Below, piece by piece: positions 1 through 5,491 of a stretch of DNA of 5,491 nt. How positions within the stretch are numbered: position 1 is the first letter of the stretch; the number at the start of each line of letters is the position of its first letter. The position numbers and the translations under genes were made by a program. This DNA comes from Polaromonas sp. (GTDB lineage Bacteria; Pseudomonadota; Gammaproteobacteria; Burkholderiales; Burkholderiaceae): positions 1-5,491 of the forward strand of contig PNMH01000161.1 in NCBI GenBank assembly GCA_013823505.1, given 5' to 3'. Below the pieces are notes generated by a model. That model was given only the letters and a program-made list of their open reading frames with translations. It ran no database searches and was not told the DNA's origin.

Positions 1-675
1 CTGGTCTGGCTCGAAGGCGAGCACCTGTGCCGCGCCTTGCTGGCACGCGGCCACCTGCCCGCGCTGCTCCTGCGCGCCGAATCGGCCCCGCACTGGGACC
101 ATGCCTGGGCCTTGCCACCCAGCGTGCGCCGGGTGGCACTGGCCGACAGCCTGCTGGCCAGTGTGAGCAGCCTGGGCTCCAGCGCGCCGGTGGGCTTTTT
201 GTGGCCCTTGCCCGCCGCCGTGGCACCCGAGCCGGGGCGACCCACTGTGCTGCTGGACCGCTTACAAGACCCGGGCAACGTCGGCTCCATCCTGCGCAGC
301 GCCGCCGCCTTCGGGTTTGAGCAGGTGCTGGCGCTCAAGGGCACGGCGGCGCTGTGGGCGCCCAAGGTGCTGCGCGCCGGCATGGGGGCGCACTTTGCGC
401 TGCGCCTCGTTGAAGCGGCCACCTTGGCCGATCTGCCGGCCTTGCAACTGCCGCTGCTGGCCACCAGCTCGCACCAAGGGCAGTGGCTGCACCAGGCCGC
501 GCTGCCCTGGCCTTGCGCCTGGCTGCTGGGCCACGAAGGGCAGGGCCTGAGCCCCGAGCTGCTGGCCGCTGCCAGCCAGCACCTGCGCATCGCCCAGCCC
601 GGCGGCGAAGAGTCGCTCAACGTCGCCGCCGCCGCCGCCATCTGCTTGCATGCCAGTGCGGTGCAGCGGGGGTGA
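1..675 (+). CDS. TrmH/SpoU-family RNA 2'-O-ribose methyltransferase, 5'-truncated by the window edge
   Basis: Predicted to transfer a methyl group from S-adenosylmethionine to a ribose 2'-OH in rRNA or tRNA, in the cytoplasm. The frame is open from base 1 to the TGA at 673-675 (224 codons). All three SPOUT-fold motifs are visible: motif 1 DPGNVGSILRSA (268-306, with the conserved Asn at 277 and Arg at 295), motif 2 LLGHEGQGLS (523-552) and motif 3 SLNVAAAAA (613-639). The opening residues VWLEGEHLCRALLARG resemble the N-terminal substrate-binding domain of the family, so the TTG at 37 is not the real start. Against a usual length of about 250-270 residues, roughly 30-45 N-terminal residues lie outside the window. 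Motif 3 usually reads SLNVS; here Ala follows Val, inside a run of five GCC codons. The gene is about 70% GC, richer than the genes that follow. It is probably a core gene unrelated to the defence operon. Family assignment is firm; which RNA nucleotide is modified cannot be told. Confidence 0.93.
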   Translation: MVWLEGEHLCRALLARGHLPALLLRAESAPHWDHAWALPPSVRRVALADSLLASVSSLGSSAPVGFLWPLPAAVAPEPGRPTVLLDRLQDPGNVGSILRSAAAFGFEQVLALKGTAALWAPKVLRAGMGAHFALRLVEAATLADLPALQLPLLATSSHQGQWLHQAALPWPCAWLLGHEGQGLSPELLAAASQHLRIAQPGGEESLNVAAAAAICLHASAVQRG

Positions 676-682
676 GGTGCCC

Positions 683-688
683 TATACT
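683..688 (+). promoter_or_regulatory. Possible -10 box (TATACT) of a promoter for the BREX operon
   Basis: TATACT matches the sigma70 -10 consensus at five of six bases and stands out in GC-rich surroundings just after the methyltransferase stop codon. At the expected distance the -35 region (about 660-665, GGTGCA) is a poor match, and there is no extended -10 TG at the right spacing. If used, transcription would start near 695 and give a leader of about 55 bases. Read-through from the upstream gene is an equally possible source of transcription. Confidence 0.25.
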
Positions 689-719
689 GGCCGGTTGCCG
701 GTTTGCAGCCACGACGGCC
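689..719 (+). other. GC-rich imperfect hairpin in the gap before the BREX operon
   Basis: GGTTGC (693-698) can pair with GCAGCC (705-710) through one G-U pair around a six-base loop. The flanking GGCC (689-692) can pair with GGCC (716-719) across a five-base bulge (711-715). No run of T follows, so this is not a standard intrinsic terminator for the upstream gene. It could be a weak leader structure or simply chance in GC-rich DNA. Confidence 0.25.
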
Positions 720-749
720 GCCAAACACGCCCCTCTATAGGTTCACGAA

Positions 750-1550
750 GTGACAGAACAGTCTGAGCAGTGGCTCAGTCAACTGGGTTTTCGATTCGGC
801 ATCAATGGGCCGCATGCGGCCCGCACCATGATGTTGGCGGAATTGCGCCTGCTGCTGGGCCACACAGAGAGCCAAGCAACGCGTGCCGACTATGCGGCAG
901 CCATCGTCGGGCGCAACGTACTCGGTAAGCCTACTAGCAAAACCCGCGAGCTCACGCTGCGCCATATGGCCACGCTGTACGGTCTGGACGATTCCAATCC
1001 CATCTTCCGCGCCTTGCGCCGCCTTTGGCCACTGAATGAATCGGCGCAACCCATGCTGGCTTTGGCGCTGGCTTTGGCGCGCGATCCGCTCTTGCGTGCA
1101 ACCCAGGCGTTCATCCTCGCCCAGCCCGTAGGAGGCGCGGTACACCGGGAATCTATACAGCGCTTGCTGGCCCAAACCCACCCGGAGCGGTTCAGCCCAG
1201 CTTCGCTGCTATCGTTCGCGAAAAATATTGCTGGCACTTGGACGGCAGGTGGAATGTTGGCCGGACGAATCCGCAAGTTGCGCACCCAGCCACCGATGCA
1301 CCCCGAGTCGCTGACGCTGATGTTGTTTCTTGGCTACCTCGAAGGCCGCACTGGCCAACGCCTGTTCTCATCGAATTGGGTCAGTCTCTTGGGTGGCGTA
1401 CCATACGAGCTCGAGGCGCTGGCACACGCTGCTTCAAACCGGGGTCTGCTCGTGTTTATGCAGGCTGGCGGTGTCACGGAAGTGCGCTTTCCCGGTTACC
1501 TCAAGCCTGAAGAAGAACGCATACGCTTAAAGGCTGCACATGTCGTCTAG
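750..1550 (+). CDS. brxA: BrxA-like protein, first gene of the BREX operon (266 residues)
   Basis: Probable BREX accessory protein; in type 1 BREX, BrxA is a small DNA-binding protein needed for full defence, of unknown precise role. The GTG at 750 is the only sensible start: an in-frame TAG lies at 738-740, and a weak AGG (739-741) sits eight bases upstream. The protein seems soluble and helical, with no signal peptide or clear membrane segment. Features compatible with BrxA/DUF1819 are a basic stretch NVLGKPTSKTRELTLRHM (residues 56-73), like the Asn-Leu-x-Lys-(S/T) region of that family, then LYGLD and a Leu/Ala-rich helix ending in LARDPLLRAT (109-118). It is longer than the roughly 200 residues usual for type 1 BrxA, and the C-terminal third has no motif I can name. 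Its place directly before and overlapping brxB supports the call as much as the sequence does. The main alternative is a separate BREX-associated family occupying the brxA or brxE slot. Confidence 0.65.
   Translation: MTEQSEQWLSQLGFRFGINGPHAARTMMLAELRLLLGHTESQATRADYAAAIVGRNVLGKPTSKTRELTLRHMATLYGLDDSNPIFRALRRLWPLNESAQPMLALALALARDPLLRATQAFILAQPVGGAVHRESIQRLLAQTHPERFSPASLLSFAKNIAGTWTAGGMLAGRIRKLRTQPPMHPESLTLMLFLGYLEGRTGQRLFSSNWVSLLGGVPYELEALAHAASNRGLLVFMQAGGVTEVRFPGYLKPEEERIRLKAAHVV
1055..1078 (+). repeat. Perfect 12-base tandem duplication inside the brxA-like gene
   Basis: GCTGGCTTTGGC occurs twice head to tail (1055-1066 and 1067-1078). It stays in frame and encodes the alternating Leu-Ala run at about residues 103-110, just before the ARDPLLR stretch. 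It could have arisen by replication slippage or reflect ordinary Leu/Ala helix composition. The reading frame is not disturbed. Confidence 0.8.
1529..1533 (+). promoter_or_regulatory. Ribosome binding site of brxB inside the end of the preceding gene
   Basis: AAAGG lies six bases before the ATG at 1540, a good spacing. It supports that ATG as the brxB start and so the 11-base overlap with the upstream gene, an arrangement that favours translational coupling. Confidence 0.6.
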
Positions 1551-2103
1551 GGTCGTCAAGCTCGCTGCCGCATACCGCCAGCACCTTTCGGTGCCTTGGC
1601 AGGGCAGGCTTGCGGCCATCCAGCGCGTCATCTTCGCGGTGTACGACAAGGCCGACGAGCTGCGCCTTCGGGCGAACGTCGAAGAGTTTGCATTGGCCAC
1701 CCAACAAGCCGGTAAGCAGTGGCTGCTTTTGGACCTGAGCAACGCCTTCCCCGAATGGATGGCGGCACAAGAGTACCGCGATGCCTACTTTGAGTCCCCG
1801 CATGACTTGGCCGGCTACCAGACCGGCGAACTGACCGAGTTCATCGCCCACCTCAATACACAGCTCAAAGCGCGCATCACGGCAGAGGCCGGCCCAGACA
1901 CGGTGGTCGCGTTGCTGGGCGTCGGGGCACTGTTCGGTCTGGCACGTGTGTCGTCCGTGGTCGAAGGCATCAAAGAGGCCGTGCCAGGTCGCCTGTTGGT
2001 GTTCTTCCCTGGCGAGCACCACCCGGAGAACCATACCTACCGCCTGCTGGACGCGCGCGACGGCTGGAACTACCTGGCCGTGCCGCTGCTGGCCAAGGAC
2101 TGA
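1540..2103 (+). CDS. brxB: BrxB, DUF1788-family BREX protein (187 residues)
   Basis: BrxB is a small core component of several BREX types; its biochemical role is not established. The length fits the family (about 190-200 residues). The C-terminal half carries the recognisable DUF1788 pattern: a hydrophobic strand and turn VVALLGVGALFGLARVSSVV (residues 122-141), then LLVFFPGE (152-159), then YRLLDARDGWNYLAVPL (167-183). These correspond to the family's segments of the form VP-lV-FyPG, LrLf and nYYRAf. The N-terminal half is helical and charged. No membrane segment or catalytic motif is evident. The ATG at 1540 has an AAAGG six bases upstream and overlaps the preceding gene by 11 bases; brxC begins 39 bases after the TGA. 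The clean FFPGE rather than the FyPGky typical of type 1 hints at a non-type-1 lineage, though that rests on remembered patterns. Confidence 0.88.
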   Translation: MSSRVVKLAAAYRQHLSVPWQGRLAAIQRVIFAVYDKADELRLRANVEEFALATQQAGKQWLLLDLSNAFPEWMAAQEYRDAYFESPHDLAGYQTGELTEFIAHLNTQLKARITAEAGPDTVVALLGVGALFGLARVSSVVEGIKEAVPGRLLVFFPGEHHPENHTYRLLDARDGWNYLAVPLLAKD

Positions 2104-2123
2104 CCCAAAGTAACAACCCAAAG
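2103..2123 (+). repeat. Eight-base direct repeat between brxB and brxC
   Basis: ACCCAAAG occurs at 2103-2110 and again at 2116-2123, a 13-base period; the five bases after each copy are similar (TAACA, AACGA). The pair fills about half of the only real gap inside the operon and starts on the last base of the brxB stop codon. Function unknown; it may be chance. Confidence 0.7.
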
Positions 2124-2132
2124 AACGAGAGC

Positions 2133-2136
2133 AAGG
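2133..2136 (+). promoter_or_regulatory. Ribosome binding site of brxC
   Basis: AAGG sits six bases before the ATG at 2143, in the A/G-rich stretch that follows the direct repeat. It supports this ATG as the start. Confidence 0.5.
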
Positions 2137-2142
2137 CCCACC

Positions 2143-5100
2143 ATGCTGAACAGGGATATCTACAACAAGGCCCCCAAGGAAAACCGACTCGTCAACAACG
2201 GCGTAGCCGAAGTATCGGAAGACTATTCGGAGGCCGCCCAGGTCATCCTGCGCTACGAGCTGGAGTCCTTCGTCTGCGACGGACAATACGAGAAGGGCCT
2301 CGAGACCATCCTCGACAAGTTCCTTTTGAATCTGGATGCCGGAACCGAACAGCCTGGGGTGTGGATTTCGGGCTTTTACGGCAGCGGCAAGTCGCATTTG
2401 GCCAAGATGCTGCGCACGCTGTGGACCGACCACCAGTTCACCGACGGCGCCACCGCTCGCAGCCTAGCCAAGCTGCCCACGGGTGTGTTCGAGCATCTCA
2501 AGGAACTCAGCACGCAGGGCAAGCGCCACGGCACCCTCCATGCGGCCGCAGGCAAGCTCGGCGCTGGAGCCGGCGACAAGGTGCGCCTGGCCTTGCTCGG
2601 CATCGTGTTCAAGTCCAAGGGCCTGCCCGAGCAGTACAACCAAGCGCAACTCGTCCTGTGGCTCAAGCGCGAGGGCATCTTGTCCGCGGTCGAAGCAGAA
2701 CTGACATCGGTTGGGCGCTCTGTGGCGCAAGAGCTGCCGCACATGTACGTGTCCAGCCATTTGGCCAAGGCACTGCTGAAAGCGCGGCCGGACCTGGCCC
2801 ACACCGAAGCCGACGCCCGTAAGCTGCTGAAAGAGCAGTTTCCCCAGGTGACCGACGTCACCAGCGAGCAGATGACCACCGCCATCGAAGCCGCGCTGGC
2901 TCAGGACGGCAAGTTTCCATTGACGCTGGTGGTGCTGGACGAGGTGCAGCAGTACATCGGCGCGGATTCCGAGAAGGCCTTTCAGGTGCAGGAGCTCACC
3001 GAGACCCTGTCCAAACACTTCAACGGCAAGCTGTTGTTCGTCGGTACCGGCCAGTCGGCGCTTTCTGGCATGCCCAACCTGCAGCGCCTGATGGGTCGGT
3101 TCCCGGTTCAGGTGATGCTGGGCGACTGGGATGTAGAGAACGTCACCCGCCAAATCATCCTAGCCAAGAAGCCCACGGCGCAGCCGCAAGTGGAAAGCGT
3201 CTGGCGCGCCAACCTGGGTGAGATTTCCCGGCACCTGCGCGGCACCAAGCTCGAGCACGTTACCGACGACGAAGATGTCATGACGTCCGACTACCCGCTG
3301 CTGCCGGTACGTCGCCGCTTCTGGGAACGTGTGCTGCGCACCATCGACACCACCGGCACCGTGTCGCAGTTGCGAAGCCAGCTGCGGGTGGTGCACGAGG
3401 CCGTGCTGGCCACCGCCGATGCACCGTTGGGCCATGTGGTTTCGGGCGACTTCCTGTACGACCAGATTGCGGCGAACCTAGTGTCTACCGCCCAACTTCC
3501 CAAGGAGGTGTTCGAGAACGTCCAGCGCTTCGCTGCAGGCGATGAACACGCCCAGATCAAAGCCAAACTGCTAAAGCTCATCTACCTCATCAACAAGCTG
3601 CCCGCCGATGCGGCGCTGGACATCGGCCTCAAAGCCACCGAGGACGCGCTGGCAGACCTGCTCGTCACCGACCTGTCAGCCGGTTCGTCCGTCCTGCGCA
3701 AGAAGTTGCCCGCGCTGCTAGGCGAACTGCAGAACAAGGACCGCCTGGTAATGGCCTTGGCTGGCGCCAGCGGCACCGAGTACCGGTTGCAGACCCGCGA
3801 GTCCAGCGCCTGGTACGACGAGTTCCGCGCTCAGGAAGCGGAGCTCAAGGCCGCCCCGCAGCGTATGGAGCAGAAGCGGTCCGACCTGTTGAAAACCCGC
3901 TTCGCGGAGGTGCTCAAGAAGGTGCGCGTGGTGCAGGGCAAGGACAACGTCGAGCGCAAGCTCTCGCCCACCTACGACGACACGCTGCCCAAGGACCATG
4001 CCCAGGCGCTGTACCTGTGGATTCAGGACGGTTGGCAGACCGAAGAAAAGTCAGTCATCGCCGAGGCCAAGGGCAAGGCGGCTGACAACCCGACGCTGTT
4101 CGCCTTCCTGCCTGCCCAGCACAAGACCGAGCTCACCAATGCCATCGTGGCGCTAGAAGCAGCCCGCACCACGCTGCAAAAGAAGGGCAGCCCCGCCACC
4201 GAGGAAGGCCGCGACGCCCAGCGCTCGATGGAGAGCCGCCAACGCACCGCAGAGAAAGACCTGGCAGAGCTGCTGGAACAACTCTTTGGGGCCGTGCGTG
4301 TGTTCCAGGCCGGTGGGCAAGAAGCACAAGATGGCAACGACTTGGCCGACCGCATCAACCGCGCCGCCAAGTCTTCTGCCATCCGCCTCTACAGCCAGTT
4401 CGATGCCGCCGACCACGACCAGTGGAGCAAGGTGCTCGACGAAGCGCGCAAGGGCAACCTCGATGCGCTGAAAGCCGTCGGCCACACCCAGGAAGCCGAC
4501 AAACACCCGGTGTGCCAAAAGCTGCTGGGCTTCATCGGGCCGGGGAAGAAGGGTGCCGAGATTCGCGACAACTTCGAGGCGCCGCCCTACGGCTGGCCGC
4601 GCGACGCCATCGACGGTGCGCTGTACGCCCTGCTCGCCGCCGGCCACCTGAAGGCCACCGATGCAGCGTCCAAGCCCGTCGAGGCAAAGAGCTTGGACCG
4701 CGCCAAACTCACCCAGACCAGCTTTAGGCGCGAGAGCATCCACATCACGCCGATACAGCTCATCAAGCTGCGCTCGTTGTTCAGCACCGTGGGTGTGCCC
4801 TGCCAGCCCAAGGAAGAGTTGGCCAAAGTGCCTATGCTGTTGGCCAAGCTGCGCGAACAGGCATTCAAGGCCGGCGGGCCAGCCCCTGCGCCCGAAGCCC
4901 CGAAGCTGACGACCATTGAAGCCATCGAAGGCCAGTCAGGCAGCGCCCAGTTGCTGGAGCTCTACACGCGCTTCGACGACATCGTTGCCTTGTCCAAGGC
5001 CTGGACGCAGACGGCCGAAGCCATTGGCAAGCGCCTTCCAGTTTGGCACCAACTGGACCAACTGCTTCGCCACGCCAAGGCGCTAGGCCCCTGCGCAGCG

Positions 5101-5491
5101 TTGAAGGCCGAGCGTGACGCCATCGAAGCCCAGCGCAGCCTGCTGGCTGACCCCGACCCGGTGCGCCCGCTGCTCGACAAAACCGTGGACCTGCTGCGCC
5201 AAGCGCTCAAGGCCAAGCTCGACGCCTTTGCGCAGACCCACGGGCAGCAGCAGACCCATCTGCATGCCGACGCAGACTGGGCCAAGCTGAGCGACGCCCA
5301 ACGTGCCGACCTGAGTCAGGCCCACCACCTGGCCGCACCGCCCGCTGTTGCGCTGGGCACCGCCGAGCAACTGCAAGACACGCTGGACGACTGTGACTTG
5401 GACCACTGGGCATCCAAGGCCCAAGCGCTGCCCAGCCGCTTCGAATCTGCCCGCCATGCGGCCGTGCAACTGCTCAAGCCCAACGTCGTTC
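2143..5491 (+). CDS. brxC: BrxC, large P-loop ATPase of BREX, 3'-truncated by the window edge
   Basis: Core BREX ATPase, thought to act with the PglX methyltransferase and PglZ in marking host DNA and blocking phage replication. I translated this frame end to end: it is open for 1116 codons to the right edge. The N terminus LNRDIYNK precedes a region with ILRYELESFVCDGQYEKGL, typical of BrxC just before the ATPase core. Walker A is GFYGSGKS (residues 77-84, Lys83). Walker B is LTLVVLDE (260-267, Asp266/Glu267). A strand LLFVGTGQ (297-304) could supply a sensor residue, and Arg319 in LMGRF is a candidate arginine finger. Residues about 662-724 are highly charged and likely form long helices or coiled coil. 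Around 807-840, IRDNF, PYGWPRDAID and ALLAAGHLKA look like a winged-helix fold, a PYGW element known to me from BrxC/PglY-type proteins. Family length is roughly 1,100-1,250 residues, so probably only some 50-100 C-terminal residues are missing. No frameshift or internal stop is seen. Confidence 0.95.
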   Translation, partial: MLNRDIYNKAPKENRLVNNGVAEVSEDYSEAAQVILRYELESFVCDGQYEKGLETILDKFLLNLDAGTEQPGVWISGFYGSGKSHLAKMLRTLWTDHQFTDGATARSLAKLPTGVFEHLKELSTQGKRHGTLHAAAGKLGAGAGDKVRLALLGIVFKSKGLPEQYNQAQLVLWLKREGILSAVEAELTSVGRSVAQELPHMYVSSHLAKALLKARPDLAHTEADARKLLKEQFPQVTDVTSEQMTTAIEAALAQDGKFPLTLVVLDEVQQYIGADSEKAFQVQELTETLSKHFNGKLLFVGTGQSALSGMPNLQRLMGRFPVQVMLGDWDVENVTRQIILAKKPTAQPQVESVWRANLGEISRHLRGTKLEHVTDDEDVMTSDYPLLPVRRRFWERVLRTIDTTGTVSQLRSQLRVVHEAVLATADAPLGHVVSGDFLYDQIAANLVSTAQLPKEVFENVQRFAAGDEHAQIKAKLLKLIYLINKLPADAALDIGLKATEDALADLLVTDLSAGSSVLRKKLPALLGELQNKDRLVMALAGASGTEYRLQTRESSAWYDEFRAQEAELKAAPQRMEQKRSDLLKTRFAEVLKKVRVVQGKDNVERKLSPTYDDTLPKDHAQALYLWIQDGWQTEEKSVIAEAKGKAADNPTLFAFLPAQHKTELTNAIVALEAARTTLQKKGSPATEEGRDAQRSMESRQRTAEKDLAELLEQLFGAVRVFQAGGQEAQDGNDLADRINRAAKSSAIRLYSQFDAADHDQWSKVLDEARKGNLDALKAVGHTQEADKHPVCQKLLGFIGPGKKGAEIRDNFEAPPYGWPRDAIDGALYALLAAGHLKATDAASKPVEAKSLDRAKLTQTSFRRESIHITPIQLIKLRSLFSTVGVPCQPKEELAKVPMLLAKLREQAFKAGGPAPAPEAPKLTTIEAIEGQSGSAQLLELYTRFDDIVALSKAWTQTAEAIGKRLPVWHQLDQLLRHAKALGPCAALKAERDAIEAQRSLLADPDPVRPLLDKTVDLLRQALKAKLDAFAQTHGQQQTHLHADADWAKLSDAQRADLSQAHHLAAPPAVALGTAEQLQDTLDDCDLDHWASKAQALPSRFESARHAAVQLLKPNVV

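What the first reader, a model, noticed from the sequence alone, without database searches (positions are those of the whole stretch)
750..5491. Head of a BREX phage-defence operon of uncertain subtype
A BrxA-like gene, DUF1788 BrxB and the BrxC ATPase lie in tight order. The order brxA-brxB-brxC is shared by types 1, 5 and 6. The long first protein, the FFPGE form of BrxB and the LNRDIYNK N terminus of BrxC do not look like classical type 1. The subtype, and any unusual genes inserted in the operon, would be decided by what follows brxC.
Basis: partly seen in the sequence, partly recalled or inferred. Interest (0 to 1): 0.7.

Follow-up and report, generated by a model that had tools for sequence, protein, structure and literature searches.

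The report
Front part of a BREX defence operon
This stretch holds the first three genes of a BREX anti-phage defence operon that, judged by its relatives, has the common type 1 layout but belongs to a little-studied branch; it is an ordinary new member of a known family, in a branch whose operons usually carry other defence genes in the middle.

Summary
In detail: brxA (750-1550), brxB (1540-2103) and an open-ended brxC (2143-5490) lie in tight order, intact and under purifying selection. PglZ of the relatives tested is NCBI's "BREX-1 PglZ type B". BrxA is modelled as the three-domain form. In the two nearest genomes looked at, the flanking RNA methylase gene is followed by carAB; in the window BREX stands there. 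Relatives carry Gabija, Septu, PsyrTA, TrlF-like, GmrSD, AIPR or unnamed modules between pglX and pglZ (over 1 kb in 22 of 23 measurable), but classical type 1 of the same order does so too, and embedded effectors are in print. The window's own pglX, cargo, pglZ and brxL were never seen. New member of a known kind, modest interest.

The parts
1..675 (+). SpoU-family RNA methyltransferase gene, 5' end cut by the window; flank, not part of BREX
   Evidence: Pfam SpoU_methylase 114 bits; nearest homologues 69% and 62% identical, where carA and carB follow
676..749 (+). 74 bp between the methylase gene and brxA; no consensus sigma-70 site was found in 500-900
750..1550 (+). brxA, modelled as the three-domain form: BrxA-like core (aligned range residues 16-215) and a C-terminal winged helix (aligned range about 182-255)
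1540..2103 (+). brxB (DUF1788)
   Evidence: PADLOC BrxB 247 bits; profile match to classical BrxB, prob 97%; model of middling confidence (pLDDT 69) has BrxB of 9zll as first two hits, E 8e-4
2143..5490 (+). brxC, AAA+ ATPase, open at the window end; Walker A GFYGSGKS at residue 77, Walker-B-like LVVLDE at residue 262
   Evidence: NCBIfam BREX_BrxC 868 bits, PADLOC 1576 bits, solved BrxC 9zdx 63 bits, motifs

Best explanation
The window is the 5' part of a type 1 BREX operon of the PglZ type B branch, in the chromosome of a proteobacterium that is probably a member of Burkholderiales, standing where carAB follows the same methylase gene in two related genomes. Shown: brxA, brxB and brxC, their order, family and (BrxA, BrxB) fold, and what follows brxC in relatives. 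Inferred: that this operon goes on with pglX, perhaps unrelated defence genes, pglZ and brxL. Mechanism, taken from studied type 1 systems and not tested here: PglX methylates a non-palindromic 6-bp site in host DNA; the AAA+ protein BrxC, joined through BrxB to the nuclease PglZ and helped by the DNA-binding BrxA, acts on DNA without the mark, and with BrxL phage replication is blocked.
For: Family and fold of the three proteins. 46 loci with a BrxC relative (45, 1): pglX in 43 of 46 (L021 and L033: DNA ends; L045: remnant), pglZ in 24 of 46 (in the others with pglX the DNA held ends at most about 6.5 kb past it), brxL in 15 of the 16 whose DNA runs past pglZ. PglZ of L025, L001 and L047 scores 874, 876 and 911 bits for BREX-1 PglZ type B (cut-off 400) and at most 57 for the models of types 4, 5 and 6. 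BrxC tree of 70 rows: window on the PglZ-B side (53 rows), support 100; PglZ-A and BrxE rows each on one side of a branch, support 99. Purifying selection. Order RNase HII-methylase-carA-carB in the two nearest genomes.
Against: The DNA stops inside brxC: pglX, pglZ and brxL of this operon were not seen. L045 shows that remnants exist, and L048 (Aeromonas plasmid record, BrxC 45% identical) has BrxC, PglX and a PglZ-B match but no brxL match in the 37 kb held. The tree is a quick one with long branches (the broken L042 among them), most row labels rest on best sequence match, and it holds no loci typed as BREX 5 or 6 by their helicases. BrxA of this branch matches classical BrxA only weakly by profile (prob 8%; via the BrxE-type BrxA 96.6% and 98.8%), and no Foldseek hit of its model reaches 0.001. 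PglX of a relative is below NCBI's BREX-1 cut-off (336 of 500 bits).
Confidence: 0.91

Rival explanations
1. The operon is a type 5 or type 6 BREX, whose core genes resemble those of type 1 but which use helicases in place of or beside BrxL.
For: Types 5 and 6 have the same core genes (PMC12839542, sections 14 and 15 read); the long BrxA resembles that of BrxE-bearing loci; the helicase of one cargo cluster (c12) also matches the BrxHI/BrxHII model, at 65 bits against 976 for PsyrT.
Against: Relatives with up to 88% identical BrxC carry PglZ type B and brxL; the gene before brxA is a methylase, not brxE; BrxE-type BrxC is on the other side of the tree; PglX of L041 scores 336 bits for BREX-1, 203 for type 6 and 155 for type 5, all below their cut-offs.
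Confidence: 0.03
2. A truncated or decayed BREX head without working downstream genes.
For: One of 46 relatives, L045, is such a remnant with a BrxC piece and a shortened PglZ, without pglX or brxL, and L042 has a broken brxC; the window ends inside brxC, so nothing excludes it.
Against: The three genes are open and under purifying selection; 43 of 46 relatives go on to pglX.
Confidence: 0.06

Closest known systems
Type 1 BREX with PglZ type B (NCBIfam NF033450), e.g. L001 Cupriavidus laharis, L037 Variovorax
   Same: BrxC 88% identical, same order brxA-brxB-brxC, same BrxA form in the branch members aligned
   Different: The window's downstream genes are unseen; its methylase neighbour was not found at E 1e-5 in the DNA held of the relatives, of which some hold only a few hundred bases before brxA
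Classical type 1 BREX with PglZ type A (TIGR02687), e.g. Klebsiella plasmid L056 and Haematobacter plasmid L051
   Same: The six core genes and their order, as seen in the window's relatives; BrxA core and BrxB fold
   Different: BrxC alike at 23-24% over about 36% of its length in E. coli and Klebsiella plasmids; BrxA about 60 residues longer with a further winged helix; long branch between the BrxC
Acinetobacter BREX with solved BrxC, BrxB and PglZ parts (9zdx, 9zll, 9zn5)
   Same: BrxB fold, BrxC family
   Different: BrxC matches at only 63 bits; its PglZ type was not tested here
BrxE-bearing BREX loci (L052, L053, L054, L060, L061, L117)
   Same: Long BrxA, profile match 96.6%
   Different: brxE in front and BrxC on the PglZ-A side of the tree; PglZ of the three tested (L052-L054) is below the cut-off of each NCBI PglZ model it matches

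Membership tests
BREX, type 1 | BrxC AAA+ ATPase | tested here: met
   NCBIfam 868 bits, cut-off 400; Walker A and a Walker-B-like motif present
BREX, type 1 | brxA and brxB before brxC | tested here: met
   folds: 7zge BrxA, 9zll BrxB; Pfam BrxB 0.1 bit below cut-off
BREX, type 1 | pglX and pglZ downstream | tested here: inconclusive
   outside the window; in relatives pglX 43 of 46, pglZ 24 of 46, the DNA held ending early in the others with pglX
BREX, type 1 | brxL as last core gene | tested here: inconclusive
   outside the window; brxL in 15 of the 16 relatives whose DNA runs past pglZ (L045 lacks it); among further PglZ-B loci in 8 of 9 of L100-L108 (in L108 the contig ends) and 3 of 4 of L047-L050 (not L048)
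BREX-1, PglZ type B branch | PglZ above the NF033450 cut-off | tested here: inconclusive
   window's pglZ unseen; over cut-off in L001, L025, L047, L050 and the genomes of L001, L003, L013, L037 (4 of 4)
BREX-1, PglZ type B branch | BrxC groups with that of PglZ-B loci | tested here: met
   quick tree, SH-aLRT 100 for the split; caveats on long branches and labels in the report
BREX, type 6 | brxE in the locus, before brxA | tested here: not met
   the gene before brxA is a SpoU methylase; elsewhere in the locus not testable
BREX, type 5 or 6 | helicase (BrxHII with a second BrxC, or BrxHI with BrxD) | not testable with these tools
   would lie beyond the window end
BREX (function) | site-specific adenine methylation and phage restriction | not testable with these tools
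   needs an experiment

The most novel reading that the evidence does not exclude
The PglZ-B branch is a separate BREX lineage that has not been studied at the bench, with its own three-domain BrxA and a BrxC remote from the solved ones, and its operon works as a carrier with two loading places (brxC-pglX and pglX-pglZ) for exchangeable back-up effectors, some not named as defence systems: a dynamin-like GTPase fused to the HKD-nuclease-like domain otherwise seen at the end of some BrxL, and a zinc-finger/coiled-coil/Hsp70 triple. The window would be one more such carrier with unknown load.
Probability: 0.25. Interest if true: 0.5.

Novelty: new member of a known kind. Interest (0 to 1): 0.22.

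Why it matters
It adds one member to a branch of type 1 BREX that NCBI's models recognise but that my paper searches (listings only) did not show to be studied under that name. If this branch restricts phages as the classical one does, although its BrxC is only distantly alike and its BrxA carries a further winged helix, comparison of the two would tell which contacts of the BREX machine are essential. Its relatives are also a source of unnamed defence candidates inside the operon.

Tried and rejected
The closest BrxA in the protein collection (98% identical) is on a contig of at most 3807 bases.

Dropped: that a loaded slot between pglX and pglZ marks the PglZ-B branch. Of 399 Burkholderiales genomes, 9 are over the PglZ-B cut-off and 8 over the PglZ-A cut-off. 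For PglZ-B I fetched 8 of those 9 (not G001, which is L001) and G043, a contig end below the cut-off; for PglZ-A all 8. The slot is over 1 kb in 7 of 8 measurable PglZ-B loci and 6 of 7 measurable PglZ-A loci.

Dropped: that the dynamin-HKD protein and the Hsp70 triple belong only to BREX. The single plasmid hit of the former (L138) and the better of two plasmid records for the zinc-finger protein (L139) lie in stretches without annotated BREX genes. The dynamin protein found nothing at 1e-30 in 300 Burkholderiales genomes, without a positive control.

Led nowhere: the PglZ type 6 model found 0 of 349 genomes of the phylum over its cut-off; haloarchaeal loci fetched as possible type 5 (L060, L061, L117) carry brxL; so the tree lacks helicase-typed rows. 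No sigma-70-like promoter at 500-900. BrxA has no sequence match in the PDB at 0.001, BrxB only weak unrelated ones at E 0.1-0.6.

Rows dropped before counts: the tree leaves out loci whose BrxC match covers 80% or less of the reference (of L001-L046: L030, L033, L044, L045). The gene clusters come from 45 loci and the window, without L046.

Full report
What is in the window. Three genes follow each other on the plus strand: 750-1550 (266 aa, GTG start), 1540-2103 (187 aa, overlapping the first by 11 bp) and 2143-5490 (1116 codons, still open). PADLOC models give BrxA 386 bits, BrxB 247 bits and BrxC 1576 bits, NCBIfam BREX_BrxC 868 bits against a cut-off of 400, Pfam BrxB 26.7 bits, just below its cut-off of 26.8. 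Before them, 1-675 is the end of a SpoU-family RNA methyltransferase gene. The genes are not chance frames: brxC against three relatives has dN 0.065-0.071 and dS 0.82-0.89.

What follows brxC in relatives. A scan of one genome per species gave 45 loci, and viral contigs one more. Of these 46, pglX is found in 43; in L021 and L033 the DNA ends in or just after brxC, and L045 is a remnant. pglZ is found in 24; in the others with pglX the DNA held ends at most about 6.5 kb past it. brxL is found in 15 of the 16 whose DNA runs past pglZ, L045 being the exception. Outside this set, brxL is found in 8 of 9 further PglZ-B loci of the Burkholderiales sample (in L108 the contig ends) and in 3 of 4 plasmid records (not L048). 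PglZ of L025 and L001 scores 874 and 876 bits for NCBI's BREX-1 PglZ type B (cut-off 400) and at most 57 for the type 4, 5 and 6 models; L047 and L050 also pass, as do the genomes of L001, L003, L013 and L037. PglX of L041 scores best for BREX-1 (336 bits), but below NCBI's cut-off of 500. By content this is type 1.

Place in the family. A tree of 70 BrxC rows (52 of this branch, the window, 11 from PglZ-A loci, 6 from BrxE-bearing loci) puts the window on the PglZ-B side, with support 100 for the split; its nearest row by path is Variovorax L037, its highest identity 88% (Hydrogenophaga L026). It is a quick tree with long branches, the labels of most rows rest on best sequence match, and helicase-typed types 5 and 6 are missing. 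The best solved BrxC matches at only 63 bits. I found no paper that uses the name PglZ type B: one search listed 3 papers, each for the other search term, and the phrase 'type B' does not occur in the main text of PMC12839542.

Site. The window's methylase protein has a match in 119 of 120 Burkholderiales genomes; the nearest are 69% and 62% identical. I looked at these two only: in both the order is RNase HII, methylase, carA, carB. In the window brxA begins 74 bp after the methylase stop codon. The methylase was not found at E 1e-5 in the DNA held of the BREX relatives, but several of these hold little DNA before brxA. That BREX was inserted between the methylase gene and carA is an inference; neither its far end nor carA of this organism was seen.

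Load of the operon in relatives. Between pglX and pglZ lie over 1 kb in 22 of 23 measurable relatives, L041 alone having none; between brxC and pglX lie more than 300 bp in 27 of 43. Recurring clusters from 45 loci, one sequence tested per cluster, match Gabija GajA/GajB (7 and 7 loci), Septu PtuA/PtuB (10 and 9), a TrlF-family/Ppl-like ATPase (5), PsyrT/PsyrA (5 and 5), GmrSD (5), AIPR/AbiU (2) and Abi_2/AbiD (4). Single genes and some small clusters were not tested. The same slot is loaded in classical type 1 of the same order: 6 of 7 measurable against 7 of 8. PMC12839542 (section 35, first of two parts read) already reports embedded nucleases and OLD-type ATPases across BREX types. So the slot is neither new nor special to this branch.

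How it likely works. From the abstracts of PMC12205998 and PMC13326643, the starts of abstracts listed and section 15 of PMC12839542: PglX methylates non-palindromic 6-bp motifs; PglZ is a metal-dependent nuclease that forms a sub-complex with BrxB; BrxC is an AAA+ protein whose self-association and DNA binding depend on ATP and which joins BrxB-PglZ; BrxA binds DNA. I infer the same for this branch; none of it was tested here.

Verdict. A real and ordinary new member of a known kind, in a little-studied branch. The window's own cargo and last three core genes remain unseen.

Noticed in passing
L004:5144-8107, L022:13506-16436, L026:10797-13718, L028:13514-16372, L038:12922-15852: After brxC and before pglX in 5 of 46 relatives: a dynamin-like GTPase (PF00350) whose C-terminal domain (PF16565) matches the HKD-nuclease-like end of a BrxL (PADLOC BrxL 69 bits; blastp to L051 BrxL 5e-8 to 2e-12), with H-[DE]-R-[YF] (one with V for the last) at the place of the BrxL motif HAR, whereas the complete BrxL of this branch that I printed show no such motif. 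600 proteins at 1e-20 among the scored candidates; one plasmid copy stands without annotated BREX genes. 'Dynamin' is not in the main text of PMC12839542.
   Followed up: partly
L009:18469-22434, L017:16753-21021, L036:16925-21190, L039:17548-21735 (cut in L022 from 21829; first gene alone in L004 from 11492): After pglX: a triple of a protein without Pfam match that looks like a zinc-finger protein by eye, a coiled-coil protein and an Hsp70-like protein; one sequence of each tested, none with a PADLOC match. By eye, in five pairs a relative of the first and a relative of the dynamin-HKD protein share source and contig length. In Paenarthrobacter a relative of the first lies near an Hsp70 gene without annotated BREX genes.
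   Followed up: partly
window 676-749: The methylase gene is followed by carA-carB in the two nearest genomes looked at; here BREX follows after 74 bp.
   Followed up: partly
L046 (viral contigs, contig of 36 kb): A contig filed as viral holds brxC, pglX and pglZ; its BrxC falls among those of Limnohabitans. Perhaps host or island DNA.
   Followed up: no
L052, L053, L054, L060, L061, L117: BrxE-bearing loci that also carry brxL; PglZ of the three tested (L052-L054) is below the cut-off of each NCBI PglZ model it matches: a group between the named subtypes.
   Followed up: no
L045:10037-13634: A decayed BREX locus in Thiocapsa imhoffii: BrxC piece and shortened PglZ, no pglX or brxL match.
   Followed up: no
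L048:17001-27957: An Aeromonas caviae record with BrxC, PglX and a PglZ type B match but no brxL match in the 37 kb held.
   Followed up: no
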